Below are positions 45,123 through 51,682 of a stretch of DNA of 64,000 bases, in pieces (position 1 is the stretch's first letter; each line of letters starts with the position of its first letter). Under the pieces are notes generated by a model. It worked only from the letters and a program-made list of their open reading frames with translations. It was not told where the DNA came from and searched no databases. The translations under genes and the position numbers were made by a program. This DNA is from Streptomyces viridochromogenes DSM 40736 (GTDB lineage: Bacteria; Actinomycetota; Actinomycetes; Streptomycetales; Streptomycetaceae): contig NZ_GG657757.1 of the NCBI RefSeq assembly GCF_000158955.1, forward strand, positions 2,825,898 to 2,889,897, written 5' to 3'.

Positions 45123-45374
45123 TCAGTGGGCCGTCAGGTGGTCGGCGAGGCCCCGCTTGACGCCCGCGACGAACGCGGTGATCTCCTCGGGCGTGTAGAT
45201 CAGCGCGGGACCGGCCGGATCCGTGGACTGCCGGACCGCCACGCGGCCGTCGGCGAGTTGTTTGGTCTCCACGCACTGCCCCCCGTTGGGACCGCTCCAG
45301 GGCCGTTCCCAGCCCTGCTCCCCCAGGTCCGACGCGGGCATCCCGTTGTAGACGGTGCCCTCGACGATGGTCAT
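45123..45374 (-). CDS. DUF397-domain protein (AbaD-like)
   Basis: An 83-residue protein with the DUF397 pattern: RPWSGPNGGQCVETKQLADG, then VRQSTDPAGPALIYTPEE and a C-terminal FVAGVKRG helix. In streptomycetes DUF397 proteins are partners of WhiJ-type XRE regulators and modulate them. It overlaps the XRE gene upstream (ATGA), so the two are translationally coupled. Confidence 0.92.
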   Translation of the reverse strand: MTIVEGTVYNGMPASDLGEQGWERPWSGPNGGQCVETKQLADGRVAVRQSTDPAGPALIYTPEEITAFVAGVKRGLADHLTAH

Positions 45375-46237
45375 GAGTACTCCTTCCGCATGCGGTTCAA
45401 CAGCGCCTTGCTGTCCGCGGACGAGGTCTTCAGCGACAGCCGGTTGTGCGCCTCCAGATGGGCGACGACGTCGGCGCGCTGGTCGAGGTAGACGGAGGCG
45501 GAGAGGATCTCGCTGTAGACGATGTCGGGCAGCTCCCGCTCCTCGAACCGGAAGTAGGTGAAGGGCGCGCACGCGCCGACGTGGGCGCCGGCGGAGAACG
45601 GAACGACGTCGACGCTGACGTGCTCCACCTCGGACGCCTCCAGGAGCCGGTCGATCTGCTCCCGCATCACCTCGGGGCCGCCCACCTCCCGGTGCAGTAC
45701 GGCCTCCTCCATCACCACCCACAGGGTGGGCGCGTCCGGCTTGGTGAGCAGGCTCTGGCGGCGCAGTCGCAACTCCACGCGCCGGTCCAGGTCCTCCTCG
45801 TTGTCGTTCGGGAACCCTCCGCGCAGCACGGCCCGGGCGTACCCGGGTGTCTGGAGCAGGCCGGTGACGTACTGCGGCTCGTAGGTGCGCAGTGTTCCGG
45901 CGCCGGTCTCCAGGCTCACGTAGGCGGTGAACCAGGCCGGCATCACATCGCGGTAGGGGTGCCACCAGCCGGGCTCGTTGGCCCGCTCGGCCAGGGTGAC
46001 GAACTCCTCGATCTCCTGCCGGCCCGCCCCGTAGGTCTGGAGCAGCTTCTCGACGTAGAGGATCTTCAGGCCGACCTCGGCCTTCTCCAGGCGGCGGATG
46101 GTCAGCGGTGTCACGCGCAGGACCTTGGCCGCGTCGTCGAGGGACAGGCCCGCGGCCTGCCGGGCCTCCTGGAGCCGACGGCCGAGGATCATGCGGAGAA
46201 CGGTGGGTGCGCCGGTGCCCGGTCTCGCGTCGTTCAC
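45371..46237 (-). CDS. XRE regulator with DUF5753 domain (WhiJ-like)
   Basis: A 288-residue regulator. The helix-turn-helix (LSLDDAAKVLRVTPLTIRRL, about residues 31-50) precedes a DUF5753 sensor domain (YEPQYVTGLLQTPGYARAVL, about 118-137). Members act with a DUF397 protein and an AbaA/RsbW-like ATPase as developmental or antibiotic regulators. All three are present here, the ATPase on the opposite strand. Next to the lasso cluster, it is a candidate local regulator. Confidence 0.9.
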   Translation of the reverse strand: MNDARPGTGAPTVLRMILGRRLQEARQAAGLSLDDAAKVLRVTPLTIRRLEKAEVGLKILYVEKLLQTYGAGRQEIEEFVTLAERANEPGWWHPYRDVMPAWFTAYVSLETGAGTLRTYEPQYVTGLLQTPGYARAVLRGGFPNDNEEDLDRRVELRLRRQSLLTKPDAPTLWVVMEEAVLHREVGGPEVMREQIDRLLEASEVEHVSVDVVPFSAGAHVGACAPFTYFRFEERELPDIVYSEILSASVYLDQRADVVAHLEAHNRLSLKTSSADSKALLNRMRKEYS

Positions 46238-46485
46238 GCCCTACCTCCTGAGGGGTCGTCACGGGCGCAAGTCTGAACAGGACTTGATCGTTCCGTCAGA
46301 CGTCCGAGCGGGACGATGCGTTCCGGTTGAAATTATCAGGGAGATGGTTGCAGCGTGAACTGCTCTGCGAGCATAGTTACTTGTGTGAACAGGGCTCCGG
46401 AAGCCCGAACCCCACTTTCCGGCCGGTCCGTTGCCCGCTCCCCCACCTTCCTCGACTCGCCCACCCCCCACGGAAGGCGACCGCC

Positions 46486-46932
46486 GTGTCCCCCCACACG
46501 ACTTCCACTCCCCGTTCCCTGGACGCGGTGCGCCCGGGCCGTACGCACTGGCTGGAACTGCCGCCCCACCGGACCAGCGTCAGGGTCGCCCGTCATGCCA
46601 CGCAGGCACGGCTGACCTCGTGGCAGATACCCGACGAGGCGTGCGCGAACGCCGTGCTGCTGGTGTCCGAGCTGGTGACCAACGCCGTCCTGCACACCCT
46701 CAGTGAACGGATCCTCTGCGGCATCGCGCGGATGACGAGCGACCGCTTCCGGCTGGAGGTGCACGACGGCGACCTCTCGGGCCGCGGCATTCCCGACCGC
46801 CGCCCCGGCCTCGACGACGAGAACGGCCGCGGGCTCCTGCTCGTCCGCGAGATAGCCGACTGCTGGGGGATCACCCGCTCGCCCCTGACGGGCGGCAACG
46901 CGGTGTGGGCGAGCCTGGCGACGGTGTTATGA
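46486..46932 (+). CDS. RsbW/AbaA-like ATP-binding protein (HATPase_c)
   Basis: A 148-residue GHKL ATPase of the anti-sigma/serine-kinase type. The N-box is ELVTNAVLH (about 63-71) and the G-box DENGRGLLLVREIAD (about 112-126). It may phosphorylate or bind an unlinked anti-sigma antagonist, or modulate the WhiJ-like regulator. The GTG at 46486 has GGAAGG 8 bp upstream. A longer frame to 46327 has no ribosome-binding site. It lies directly upstream of the lasso cluster in the same direction. Confidence 0.85.
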   Translation: MSPHTTSTPRSLDAVRPGRTHWLELPPHRTSVRVARHATQARLTSWQIPDEACANAVLLVSELVTNAVLHTLSERILCGIARMTSDRFRLEVHDGDLSGRGIPDRRPGLDDENGRGLLLVREIADCWGITRSPLTGGNAVWASLATVL

Positions 46933-46956: not shown

Positions 46957-47008
46957 TGTTGAATCAACAACAGAGAGGCCCTTTTGGCTATATGGGCACA
47001 TTGGTGCC
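46957..47008. promoter_or_regulatory. Palindromes in the lasso cluster promoter region
   Basis: The 130 bp between the ATPase gene and the lasso precursor are unusually A+T-rich and should hold the cluster promoter. TGTTGAATCAACA (46957-46969) is a perfect 6-1-6 palindrome. GGCAC-ATTG-GTGCC (46995-47008) is a second one. TTGGCT (about 46984) and TATTGT (about 47009) are plausible but not firm -35/-10 elements. The palindromes could bind the neighbouring XRE regulator. Confidence 0.5.
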
Positions 47009-47062: not shown

Positions 47063-47176
47063 ATGCGCACCTACGAGCGTCCGACGCTGACTGCGGTCGG
47101 CTCCTTCCGCAAGACCGGTCTGGGCTTCAAGGACGGACCGGAACGTTTCTGGTTCTTCCGGAGGAAGTTCTTCTGA
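47063..47176 (+). CDS. Lasso peptide precursor
   Basis: A 37-residue precursor. The leader MRTYERPTLTAVGSFRKTG has the YxxPxL...GxF pattern recognised by RRE proteins (Tyr4, Pro7, Leu9, Gly13, Phe15) and Thr18 at the conserved -2 position. The core is LGFKDGPERFWFFRRKFF (18 residues). Its Leu1 amine can close on Glu8 to give an 8-residue ring, with a bulky aromatic and basic tail FWFFRRKFF able to lock the thread. It has no Cys. AGGAGG (47048-47053) precedes the ATG by 9 bp. The full maturation set follows. Confidence 0.93.
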   Translation: MRTYERPTLTAVGSFRKTGLGFKDGPERFWFFRRKFF

Positions 47177-47179
47177 TCT

Positions 47180-47238
47180 GCCGGTTGTGCCACCGGCACG
47201 GGCTCTCCAAGCGGCGGTAGGGCGTCAGTCCTGCCGCC
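47180..47238 (+). promoter_or_regulatory. Two hairpins between precursor and cyclase genes
   Basis: GCCGGT/ACCGGC (47180-47197, 6-nt loop) and GGCGGTAGG/CCTGCCGCC (47213-47238, 9 bp with one G-U, 8-nt loop). They probably act as a partial terminator or mRNA stabiliser, so that far more precursor than enzyme is made, a common layout in RiPP operons. Confidence 0.6.
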
Positions 47239-47262
47239 CCCCGCGTGCAGGAAGGGACCGGC

Positions 47263-49104
47263 ATGGTCGGTTTTCCCGATTCCGGCGAGGGGCCGGGCTG
47301 GTTCGTCATCCTTCCGGACTGTGCTTCGGCGGCCCCGGTGGCCGCCGCGCTTCGCACCCGGAACATCCAGGAGGTCGGCCACCCGTCCGGACGTCCCTGG
47401 CTGCTCGGCCGCTGGTCCCCCGGTGCCATGGCCCTCGGGGAGGCGGGCCGGACGAAGATCGTGATCGTCGGTGAACACGCCGTCACCGCCGACCGGCTCG
47501 GCCCGGCGGCGGGCCGGATCGACACGATCGCCGAGCTGGACGGTCTGACCCGTGACCTGGCCGGGAGTTCTCACCTGATCGCCTCGGTCGCCGGACGTGT
47601 GCGGGTCCAGGGAAGCATCAGCGGCTTCCGGCGGGTGTTCCACGCCAGGGTCGGCGGCGCCACCGTGGCCGCGGACCGGGCCGACGTCCTGGCCGCCCTG
47701 CTCGGCGCGGAGGTCGACGAGCAGCGGCTGGCAGTGCGCCTGCTGAACCCGTACGCGCCGCACCCGCTGGCCGGCGAGCCGGTGTGGTGTGAGGTGAACG
47801 CCCTGGGGATGGGCCGCTACCTGGCACTCGACGCGGACGGCCGGGGACGGCCCGTCGCGTGGTGGACGCCTCCCGAGCCGGTGGCGCCGATGGCCGAGGG
47901 CGCGCCGGCCTTTCGGCAGGCGCTCTCGACGGCGGTGGAGGTCCGTGTCCGGGGCCGGGACGTGGTGAGCTGCGATCTGGGCGGGCTGGACTCGACCTCG
48001 GTGTGCGCGCTGGCCGCCCGCGGCACGGCGAAGGTCGTCGCCTACACCGCCGACGGCCTCGATCCCCTGTGCGACGACGTGACCTGGGCTCGCAGGACGG
48101 TCGCGGGACTGGACGACGTCGAACACCACACCCTCGCCGGAGACCGGTTGCCGATGGTCTTCGAGGGCCTTCGGGACGTGGCCGAGCGCTTCGACGAGCC
48201 GTGCCCGGCGATGATGCATCCCAGCCGCTGTCTGGCCGTTCCACGGTTGGCCGCGGAACACGGTTCCCGCATGCACCTGACGGGCTTCGGCGGGGACGAG
48301 TTGCTCGCCGGCTCGCCTGCGCATCTGCACACGCTGATACGGAGCCACCCCCGGGTCGCGTGGCAGCGCCTGCGTGGCTTCGCCGCCCAGGGCCCCTGGC
48401 CGTACCGGGAAACGCTCCGGCAGTTGTGGGACGACAGTTCCTACCGCTCGTGGCTCACCCGGGCCGGCGACCAGCTCACCGCCGTACCGCCTCCCTTGCA
48501 GACGCCCGCGCTGGACTGGGGGACGCCACCACGGCTCCCCCCATGGACGACACCGGACGCCGTCGAAACCGTACGAGAGCTGATCCGCACTGCGGCACGT
48601 ACCACCGAGCCCCTGGCGGAAGGGCGCGGACAGCACGTCGAGCTGGACGCCCTGGGGAACAACTCCCGCATGGTCCGGCAGGTGAGCCAGCTGGCCGGCC
48701 GCACCGGGCTCGTCTTCGCCGCCCCCTACTACGACGACCGCGTGATCGAGGCGGGCCTGGCGGTGCGGCCGCAGGACCGGATCACCCCCTGGCGGTACAA
48801 GCCGCTCATCGTCGAGGCGATGCGCGGCATCGTGCCCGCCGAGAGCCTGACCCGCCACACCAAGGACGAGGGTTCGTACGAGGCGGAGGCCGGGATGCGG
48901 GAGCAGCGTGCCGAGTTGCTGGCCCTGTGCGAGGACTCCCGGCTGGCCCGGGCGGGTCTGATCGACGCGAAGGTGTTGCACGAGACGTGCAGCCGGCCGC
49001 TGCCCCCGACTCTGCCGTTCGACGCGCTGTACCAGACCGTGGTGTGCGAGCTGTGGCTGCGCACGCTGGAGCTGGAGAGGGCCGATGGCATTCAAGCTGC
49101 GTGA
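47263..49104 (+). CDS. Lasso cyclase (asparagine-synthetase-like)
   Basis: A 613-residue enzyme that activates the core Glu8 (or Asp) side chain as an acyl adenylate and forms the isopeptide bond with the core N-terminus. The C-terminal half is the AsnB synthetase domain with a PP-loop DLGGLDSTS (about 238-246), GGDELLAGSP (about 343-352) and YDDRVIEAGL. The N-terminal glutaminase-like half lacks a leading catalytic Cys, as in other lasso cyclases. AGGAAGG at 47249-47255 decides the ATG at 47263 over the GTG at 47245. Confidence 0.93.
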   Translation: MVGFPDSGEGPGWFVILPDCASAAPVAAALRTRNIQEVGHPSGRPWLLGRWSPGAMALGEAGRTKIVIVGEHAVTADRLGPAAGRIDTIAELDGLTRDLAGSSHLIASVAGRVRVQGSISGFRRVFHARVGGATVAADRADVLAALLGAEVDEQRLAVRLLNPYAPHPLAGEPVWCEVNALGMGRYLALDADGRGRPVAWWTPPEPVAPMAEGAPAFRQALSTAVEVRVRGRDVVSCDLGGLDSTSVCALAARGTAKVVAYTADGLDPLCDDVTWARRTVAGLDDVEHHTLAGDRLPMVFEGLRDVAERFDEPCPAMMHPSRCLAVPRLAAEHGSRMHLTGFGGDELLAGSPAHLHTLIRSHPRVAWQRLRGFAAQGPWPYRETLRQLWDDSSYRSWLTRAGDQLTAVPPPLQTPALDWGTPPRLPPWTTPDAVETVRELIRTAARTTEPLAEGRGQHVELDALGNNSRMVRQVSQLAGRTGLVFAAPYYDDRVIEAGLAVRPQDRITPWRYKPLIVEAMRGIVPAESLTRHTKDEGSYEAEAGMREQRAELLALCEDSRLARAGLIDAKVLHETCSRPLPPTLPFDALYQTVVCELWLRTLELERADGIQAA

Positions 49105-49411
49105 GGGTGTGTTCACGGCCGAGACGGACTACGGAATCGCGCTCCTCGACGAGGACGGCGACCAGTACTGGACGCTCAATCCCAGCGCCGCCGTCGCCTT
49201 GCGGACCCTGCTGGACGGCGGTACCGAAGCCGAGGCCGCGCAAAGGCTCACCGAGGAGTACGCGGTGGACGTCGGCACCGCGCACCGGGACGTCCGGGAG
49301 CTGGTCGGCGAACTGCGCTCGGCGGGCCTGGGCGAAGACGACCCCGGCCGCAGGGCCCACGGCCGATGGCCGCGCGGACGCGGCCGGCGGGCGGGGAGGA
49401 AGCGGCGATGA
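49085..49411 (+). CDS. Lasso RRE protein (PqqD-like, B1)
   Basis: A 108-residue protein with the winged-helix PqqD fold over about residues 1-82: FTAETDYGIALLDEDGDQYW, LNPSAAVALRTLL and DVGTAHRDVRELVGEL. It binds the leader's YxxPxL motif and delivers the precursor to the peptidase and cyclase. The last 25 residues are a basic Arg/Gly tail. It overlaps the cyclase gene by 20 bp and the next gene by ATGA. Confidence 0.9.
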   Translation: MAFKLREGVFTAETDYGIALLDEDGDQYWTLNPSAAVALRTLLDGGTEAEAAQRLTEEYAVDVGTAHRDVRELVGELRSAGLGEDDPGRRAHGRWPRGRGRRAGRKRR

Positions 49412-49881
49412 CCTCACCGGAGGTGATCTTCCACGACCCGCACTCGGTGCCCCTGCGACGCCGGATCCCGGTCCGGCTCGCCGTGGGCGCCGCGCGGTTG
49501 CTGGCCCGTCGGCGCCCCCGGCGCATCAGGGCCGTGCTGGAGTGGCTGCGCCGGGGCGCCCGTCCGGCCACCTTCGAGCAGACCCGGGCCGCCCGGGACT
49601 CCGTGGTCGCGGTCAGCCTGGCGTGCGGGGGCCGGGAAGGGTGTCTGCCCCGCTCCCTGGCCACGATCCTGCTGTGCCGCCTGCACGGCCAGTGGCCGAC
49701 CTGGTGCGTAGGCACGCGGCGTCTGCCGCCCTTCGGTGCGCACGCCTGGGTGGAGGCGGAGGGGGTGCCGGTGGGAGAGAACCACCCGCCCGACTACTTC
49801 CGACCCCTCTTCACCGTGCCCTGCGCACCTGGTCCCGTCAGCCGCGAGGCCGTGATCCATGAAGCCCGAAACGACCGGTGA
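49408..49881 (+). CDS. Lasso leader peptidase (B2, transglutaminase-like)
   Basis: A 157-residue cysteine protease that cuts the leader after Gly19. The catalytic Cys lies in REGCLPRSL (Cys79) and the His in FGAHAWVEAEG (His112), with an acidic residue expected soon after. The N-terminal arm is Arg-rich. GGGGAGGA at 49393-49400 decides the ATG at 49408 rather than an in-frame ATG at 49366. It overlaps the transporter gene by 23 bp. Confidence 0.92.
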   Translation: MTSPEVIFHDPHSVPLRRRIPVRLAVGAARLLARRRPRRIRAVLEWLRRGARPATFEQTRAARDSVVAVSLACGGREGCLPRSLATILLCRLHGQWPTWCVGTRRLPPFGAHAWVEAEGVPVGENHPPDYFRPLFTVPCAPGPVSREAVIHEARNDR

Positions 49882-51682
49882 GACGGGCGAGCGGAGCCGG
49901 ACCGCCCCACTGGACTTCCTGCGCCTGCTGCACGGCCACCGGCGGTGGGTGGCCCTCGCCGTCCTGCTGACGCTGGGGGCCTCGGCTCTGAGCCTGGCCC
50001 AGCCGCTGCTGGTCAAGCAGGTGATCGAGTCGACCTCGTCCGGCAGCGCGATCGGGCCGGCCCTGGTGCTTTTGGTCGTCCTCTTCCTCGCCCAGGCTCT
50101 GGTGCAGGGCCTCGCCCAGTTCGTCCTGGCCCGCACGGGCGAAGGGATCGTCCTGGGGATCCGGCTCGGCCTGATCAAGCACGTGCTGCGACTGCCCATG
50201 GCCGTCTACGACCGCCACCGCATCGGCGATCTGATCTCGCGCACCAGCACCGACAGCACCACCTTGCGGCTGCTCGTCGCGGAGGGCTTCACCGAAGCGA
50301 TCACCGGTGCCATCGGGCTGATCGGCATCGTGGTGCTGATGATCTGGCTCGACTGGCTGATGTTCCTCGTCGTGCTGGGCATGGTGGCGATCGCCACCGT
50401 GATCGTCGTGTCGGTGCTGCACGGCATCGAGGTGGCGTCGCTCTTGACGCAGCGGGCGACGGGCGCGATGACCGCTGATCTGGAACGCGCCCTCGGCGCC
50501 ATCCGCACCGTCCGGGCCAGCCGCGCCGAGCAGCGCGAGACCGACCGCATCGCGGGTGGCGCCAGATCGGCCTACGTGGGAAGCGTGCGGATGGCGAAGC
50601 TGGACGCCGTGGTGGCACCGGCGATCCAACTGGCCGTCAAGGGATCGTTCATCGTCGTCCTGCTCATCGGCGGCATGCGGGTCGCCGACCGGCAGGGGTC
50701 GATCGCCGACCTCGCCGCCTTCCTGCTCTACATGATCTACCTGGTGGAGCCGATCGGCATGCTGTTCCAGTCGCTCAGCACCATGGAGCAGGGCGTGGGG
50801 GCGTACCGCAGGGTCACGGAAGTGCTCGAACTGCCCACGGAGCAGGACGCCGTGTCAGCGGCCGGGGCTCCGGCGCGCGGCCCGGCGGATGGCGACGGCG
50901 GGCCACGAGCGCCCGCGCTGGAGTTCCGCGACGTGTGGTTCGGCTACGATCCCCGGCGCCCCGTCCTGCGCGGCGTGACCTTCGAGGCGCCGGAGCACTC
51001 CCATGTCGCCCTGATCGGCAGTTCGGGGGTCGGAAAGTCCACCGTGTTCGCGCTGATCGAGCGGTTCTACGACCCGGATCGCGGCCACATCCTCTTCGGC
51101 GGCGCTGACATACAGGAGATCGGCCGGGCCGCGCACCGGGCCCGGGTCGGTCTGGTGGAACAGCACGCCCCCGTGCTGTACGGCACGCTGCGGGAGAACC
51201 TGACCTACGCCGTCCCGGACGCCGGGCCGCAGGAGCTGGACCGGGTGGTCGAGCTGGCACACCTCACGGATCTGATCGCCCGTCTGCCGGAGGGTCTGGA
51301 GACCGACGCCGGGGAGCACGGCATGGCGCTCTCCGGCGGTGAGCGCCAGCGGATCGCGATCGCCAGGGCTCTGCTGGCCCGGCCGCGCCTTCTCCTGCTG
51401 GACGAGCCGACCGCCCATCTGGACGCGGTCAGCGAAGCGGCGCTGCGCAGATCGATGCGGGAGACCGCGCGGGAGTGCACGCTGCTCGTGATCGCGCACC
51501 GCATGTCGACCATTCGCGCCGCGGACCTGATCGTCGTCCTCGACGCCGGCCGAGTCGTCGCCACGGGCAGCCACGGGGAGCTCCTCGACAGCAGTGAGCA
51601 CTACAGGTCGCTCATCCGCGCACAGCAGACAGGGGATCTCCGCGTGCCGCGCACAGCGGGCCTGAAGGGCGGAGCCGGGTGA
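49859..51682 (+). CDS. Lasso peptide ABC exporter (fused permease-ATPase)
   Basis: A 607-residue half-transporter. Six membrane helices span about residues 30-310. The ATPase has Walker A GSSGVGKST (about 389-397), signature LSGGERQRI and Walker B LLLLDEPTAHLD, followed by the H-loop IAHRMST. It forms a homodimer that exports the finished lasso peptide and probably gives self-immunity. Last gene of the cluster, convergent with era with only 16 bp between stops. Confidence 0.93.
   Translation: MKPETTGETGERSRTAPLDFLRLLHGHRRWVALAVLLTLGASALSLAQPLLVKQVIESTSSGSAIGPALVLLVVLFLAQALVQGLAQFVLARTGEGIVLGIRLGLIKHVLRLPMAVYDRHRIGDLISRTSTDSTTLRLLVAEGFTEAITGAIGLIGIVVLMIWLDWLMFLVVLGMVAIATVIVVSVLHGIEVASLLTQRATGAMTADLERALGAIRTVRASRAEQRETDRIAGGARSAYVGSVRMAKLDAVVAPAIQLAVKGSFIVVLLIGGMRVADRQGSIADLAAFLLYMIYLVEPIGMLFQSLSTMEQGVGAYRRVTEVLELPTEQDAVSAAGAPARGPADGDGGPRAPALEFRDVWFGYDPRRPVLRGVTFEAPEHSHVALIGSSGVGKSTVFALIERFYDPDRGHILFGGADIQEIGRAAHRARVGLVEQHAPVLYGTLRENLTYAVPDAGPQELDRVVELAHLTDLIARLPEGLETDAGEHGMALSGGERQRIAIARALLARPRLLLLDEPTAHLDAVSEAALRRSMRETARECTLLVIAHRMSTIRAADLIVVLDAGRVVATGSHGELLDSSEHYRSLIRAQQTGDLRVPRTAGLKGGAG

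What the first reader, a model, noticed from the sequence alone, without database searches (positions are those of the whole stretch)
47063..51682. Complete five-gene lasso peptide biosynthetic cluster beside era
Sequence shows a 37-residue precursor with an RRE-recognition leader (YxxPxL...GxF) and Thr at -2, followed by an AsnB-like cyclase, a PqqD-like RRE protein, a transglutaminase-like peptidase with Cys79/His112, and an ABC exporter. The four enzyme and exporter genes all overlap their neighbours. Class II lasso families are established. That this exact product is new is inference: I could not match the core to a lasso peptide I remember.
Basis: partly seen in the sequence, partly recalled or inferred. 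Interest (0 to 1): 0.85.

Follow-up and report, generated by a model that had tools for sequence, protein, structure and literature searches.

The report
Streptomyces lasso peptide gene cluster
A Streptomyces chromosome carries a complete, ordinary five-gene set for making a small knotted (lasso) peptide whose exact sequence was not found in the literature searched; the one unusual possibility is that a secreted enzyme known to modify another lasso peptide of such strains may modify this one too.

Summary
A 37-residue precursor (47063-47176), AsnB-like cyclase (47263-49104), PqqD-like RRE protein (49085-49411), B2 cysteine peptidase (49408-49881, Cys79/His112) and ABC exporter (49859-51682) form a compact lasso peptide operon, tail to tail with era. 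Precursor, B1 and B2 pass lasso-specific NCBIfam cut-offs. The predicted product is a class II lasso, LGFKDGPERFWFFRRKFF, with an 8-residue ring Leu1-Glu8. Eleven further Streptomyces genomes carry the same precursor type; GPE at positions 6-8 is invariant, which supports Glu8 as the ring acid. The family is related to lagmysin (YERPTL leader; cyclase with the same shortened ATP loop). No held paper contains the core. I rate it a new member of a known kind. Two additions: the same genome has a citrulassin cluster and a secreted peptidylarginine deiminase, and Arg9 sits where citrulassin's deiminated Arg9 sits, so this may be a second substrate (weak support); and related clusters in other genomes have their only core acid at position 10 or 11, implying larger rings than known or a shifted cleavage. 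Production, topology and activity are unshown.

The parts
47063..47176 (+). A: lasso precursor, leader MRTYERPTLTAVGSFRKTG, core LGFKDGPERFWFFRRKFF
   Evidence: PF19397 E 6e-11; NF033521 20.3 bits over cut-off 19; homologues with invariant GPE
47263..49104 (+). C: AsnB-like macrolactam cyclase (613 aa)
   Evidence: PF00733 E 1.6e-36; NF033561 242.7 bits, below its cut-off 300; PP-loop DLGGLDST
49085..49411 (+). B1: PqqD-like leader-binding (RRE) protein
   Evidence: NF033530 107.5 bits over cut-off 70; TfuB1 6JX3 E 3e-16
49408..49881 (+). B2: transglutaminase-like leader peptidase, Cys79/His112
   Evidence: NF033537 125 bits over cut-off 33; PF13471 E 5.9e-26; residue numbers
49859..51682 (+). 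D: ABC exporter (607 aa)
   Evidence: PF00664 and PF00005
46959..46972 (+). upstream element TTGAATCAACAACA kept in part (TTGAAT...AAC) in most homologous clusters; role unknown
   Evidence: alignment of 12 upstream regions

Best explanation
This is a class II lasso peptide operon in the order A-C-B1-B2-D. [quoted passage not shown] The tail RFWFFRRKFF is bulky, aromatic and basic; its bulky residues would hold the thread. Shown here: gene content, family membership, conservation of leader and Glu8. Inferred: cleavage, cyclisation, threading, export and activity. The cationic aromatic tail suggests an antibacterial role, but nothing here tests that.
For: Family hits for all five genes. Closest solved relative of B1 is TfuB1. 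In all these precursors TG is followed by five variable residues and then GPE; Glu8 is the only acid common to all. The cyclase shares a one-residue-shorter PP-loop with cyclases beside lagmysin-type precursors, and lagmysin is a listed class II lasso peptide (PMC12427821).
Against: No product was observed. The cyclase is below the cut-off of the nearest NCBIfam cyclase model (242.7 against 300) and matches the general lasso cyclase model NF033535 only weakly (50.9 against 525). One homologous locus (G199, L088) has lost B1, B2 and most of C, so the cluster is dispensable.
Confidence: 0.93

Rival explanations
1. The same lasso peptide is further modified: the strain's secreted peptidylarginine deiminase (PAD), known to act on citrulassin Arg9, also converts Arg9 of this peptide to citrulline.
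For: PAD gene in the same genome (PF03068, 393.7 bits) with a signal-peptide-like N-terminus and the GEVHCGTN motif. Arg9 directly follows the ring, as in citrulassins. PAD in 7 of 12 GPE-lasso genomes against 66 of 393 Streptomyces; 3 of 5 such genomes without a citrulassin hit have PAD.
Against: PAD here is already accounted for by the citrulassin cluster of the same genome. Two PAD-bearing members have Lys9, five GPE genomes lack PAD, two PADs are in split frames, and the sample test is not significant (p 0.06); shared ancestry is not controlled.
Confidence: 0.17
2. The genes are a decayed or silent remnant that makes no peptide.
For: A homologous cluster in G199 has lost B1, B2 and most of C.
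Against: All five reading frames in the window are intact with catalytic residues and ribosome sites, and the core is conserved among distant genomes. Silence under laboratory conditions cannot be excluded by sequence.
Confidence: 0.05
3. The product is a macrocycle or branched-cyclic peptide closed at Asp5 or left unthreaded, not a lasso.
For: Asp5 is a second acid in the core; topology cannot be read from sequence.
Against: Asp5 is Ala or Arg in homologues while Glu8 is invariant; the enzymes are those of lasso clusters; known ring sizes are 7-9.
Confidence: 0.03

Closest known systems
Lagmysin family (class II lasso peptides of Streptomyces)
   Same: YERPTLT leader, Thr at -2, Leu1, 8-residue ring, order A-C-B1-B2, cyclase with the short DLGG PP-loop
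   Different: core sequence (Glu8 instead of Asp8, basic aromatic tail); cyclase about 47% identical
Citrulassins (class II lasso peptides with citrulline at position 9)
   Same: Leu1, 8-residue ring, Arg9 directly after the ring; a citrulassin cluster and a PAD are in the same genome
   Different: leader YEAPTL, ring acid Asp8, SKN tail, cyclase 45% identical with the standard DLSGGLDS loop
Fusilassin/fuscanodin system of Thermobifida fusca
   Same: B1 homologous to TfuB1 (6JX3, E 3e-16); separate B1 and B2
   Different: core WYTAEWGLELIFVFPRFI unrelated in sequence
Lassomycin and lariocidin
   Same: class II lasso peptides with several basic residues
   Different: no sequence relation of the core; lassomycin's C-terminal methylation has no counterpart gene here

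Membership tests
class II lasso peptide cluster | precursor with RRE-binding leader and Thr at -2 | tested here: met
   NF033521 above cut-off, PF19397; sequence
class II lasso peptide cluster | AsnB-like macrolactam cyclase | tested here: met
   PF00733 E 1.6e-36; no NCBIfam lasso cyclase model reaches its cut-off
class II lasso peptide cluster | leader-binding B1 and cysteine peptidase B2 | tested here: met
   NF033530 and NF033537 above cut-off
class II lasso peptide cluster | Asp or Glu at core position 7-9 | tested here: met
   Glu8, invariant in homologues
class II lasso peptide cluster | no cysteine in the core | tested here: met
   core sequence
class II lasso peptide cluster | isopeptide bond and threaded topology of the product | not testable with these tools
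   needs MS/MS and NMR
citrulassin | Leu1-Asp8 ring with NDR motif and SKN tail | tested here: not met
   core has GPER and ends in FF
citrulassin | Arg9 next to the ring and a PAD gene elsewhere in the genome | tested here: met
citrulassin | citrulline in the product | not testable with these tools
   needs mass spectrometry
albusnodin/ikarugamycin-type cyclase | score above the NF033561 cut-off | tested here: not met
   242.7 against 300 bits

The most novel reading that the evidence does not exclude
The peptide is a second natural substrate of the strain's secreted PAD and carries citrulline at position 9, so that one deiminase encoded elsewhere in the genome serves two different lasso products from distant loci.
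Probability: 0.17. Interest if true: 0.5.

Novelty: new member of a known kind. Interest (0 to 1): 0.3.

Why it matters
It adds a small, well-conserved lasso peptide family (GPE ring; basic aromatic FWFFRRRFF tails or short RFSL tails) to the lagmysin relatives, with an exact mass to look for. If Arg9 is deiminated, the PAD of citrulassin producers would be a general modifier of exported lasso peptides rather than a citrulassin enzyme.

Tried and rejected
Exact core and near-homologue strings in the paper library: no lasso paper; 'lasso peptide' with coeruleorubidus: nothing relevant. PDB search with the cyclase: no hit; with B2: only repeat-driven hits to TAL effectors, disregarded as chance. 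The upstream HATPase-like gene (46402-46932) was considered as a cluster regulator and rejected: among the homologous clusters it was found only in L012 and is absent beside S. coeruleorubidus. The Sco1979-type regulator (45371-46237) and era were rejected as parts on the same ground. The cyclase tree does not resolve where the lagmysin branch joins the GPE group because of long branches, so I rely on identity and the PP-loop. The primary citrulassin PAD paper (PMC7749083) is not held; its content is taken from the review PMC9266682.

Full report
What is there. The window lies in an 8.65 Mb single-contig Streptomyces genome. The precursor at 47063-47176 reads MRTYERPTLTAVGSFRKTGLGFKDGPERFWFFRRKFF, follows the ribosome site AGGAGG, and hits PF19397 (E 6e-11) and the NCBIfam lasso leader model (20.3 bits, cut-off 19). 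Cyclase, B1, B2 and exporter follow with overlaps of 20, 4 and 23 bases. B1 and B2 pass lasso-specific NCBIfam models well above cut-off; the B2 residues Cys79 and His112 are numbered correctly. B1 is homologous to TfuB1, whose structure is solved (6JX3, E 3e-16). The exporter runs tail to tail with era.

How it works. By the established lasso pathway (reviewed in PMC9266682), B1 binds the leader, B2 removes it, and the cyclase activates an Asp or Glu at position 7-9 and joins it to residue 1. Cleavage with Thr at -2 gives the core LGFKDGPERFWFFRRKFF, in which Glu8 is the only acid at 7-9. Comparison supports this. Cores in related clusters read LGFRAGPERFWFFRRRFF (S. coeruleorubidus, NRRL B-1140), IGFRAGPERYWFFRRRFF (S. 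scabichelini), IGFRAGPERFWFFRRRFF (S. violaceus, G199), LGTNRGPERVVPLRFSL (S. albicerus), LGTDRGPEKRLVLRFSL (S. ficellus), LGLFRGPERLIRLRFSL (S. calvus), LGTNRGPERVIPLRFSL (G049), LGTHRGPERVLPARFSL (G156) and LGTTRGPEKHLVLKFSL (G006). GPE at 6-8 is invariant; Asp5 of the window is not kept. The core has no Cys, so the product would be class II. The tail holds four basic and six aromatic residues. These steps are inferred from family knowledge; no product was seen.

Family. The wider YERPTL group includes lagmysin-type precursors (LAGQGSPDLLGGHSLL occurs in G441 and G443; listed as lagmysin in PMC12427821) and IKDHGPKD-type precursors. In their cyclases the ATP-binding PP-loop reads DL-GG(L/V)DST, one residue shorter than DLSGGLDST of citrulassin cyclases. 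Since lagmysin is a known product, the short loop is compatible with activity (inference). Cyclase identity to the window is 72-84% in most of the GPE group, 65% in S. calvus, about 47% in lagmysin-type clusters and 45% in the citrulassin cluster of the same genome. The location varies: beside era in the window, S. coeruleorubidus and NRRL B-1140, not found beside era in the other loci read. In G199 precursor and exporter remain while B1, B2 and most of C are gone.

Citrulline lead. The same genome has a second lasso cluster at C1:1006834 onward with core LLGRHGNDRLILSKN, identical to a citrulassin core listed in PMC12971885, and a PAD gene at C1:4632984-4634288. In citrulassin, Arg9, the first residue outside the ring, is deiminated by a distantly encoded PAD (PMC9266682; PMC12971885). 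Arg9 of the present core is in the same position. PAD occurs in 66 of 393 Streptomyces, in 17 of 46 citrulassin-bearing genomes (Fisher p 0.0003), in 3 of 6 GPE-lasso genomes of that sample (p 0.06), and in 7 of 12 when named genomes are added. Three of the five GPE-lasso genomes without a citrulassin hit have PAD, two of them as split frames. Lys9 in two PAD-bearing members, and ancestry that was not controlled, weaken the case. I hold it as a testable idea, not a result.

Verdict. The product is very probably an undescribed class II lasso peptide, but of a known kind; the literature search covered open-licence papers only.

Noticed in passing
L085 (G085), L086 (G182), L087 (G389); precursors in L009, L024, L028: Related complete clusters whose cores after TG (KPFRKGKGPPDIVIKGNLL; MALKR(K/T)GPPDFLGQHSILR) have their only acid at position 11 or 10, beyond the known 7-9: larger rings or a shifted leader cleavage. 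Their cyclases have the PP-loop DLSGLDST.
   Followed up: partly
G000:C1:1006834 onward (L050) and G000:C1:4632984-4634288 (L047): Second lasso cluster (citrulassin, core LLGRHGNDRLILSKN) and a probably secreted peptidylarginine deiminase in the same genome, far from the window.
   Followed up: partly
window 47263-49104 and cyclases in L006-L046: Cyclases of the YERPTL precursor group have a PP-loop one residue shorter (DLGGxDST) than citrulassin cyclases (DLSGGLDST).
   Followed up: yes
window 46959-46972: TTGAAT...AAC about 100 bases upstream of the precursor start is kept in most homologous clusters although most of the surrounding region is not.
   Followed up: no
L088 (G199:C1:292000-306000): Decayed homologous cluster: precursor and exporter remain, B1, B2 and most of the cyclase are gone.
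   Followed up: partly
L010 (S. coeruleorubidus): Against the window, B2, exporter and era are 94-97% identical but the cyclase 83% and B1 68%, which may reflect recombination within the cluster.
   Followed up: no
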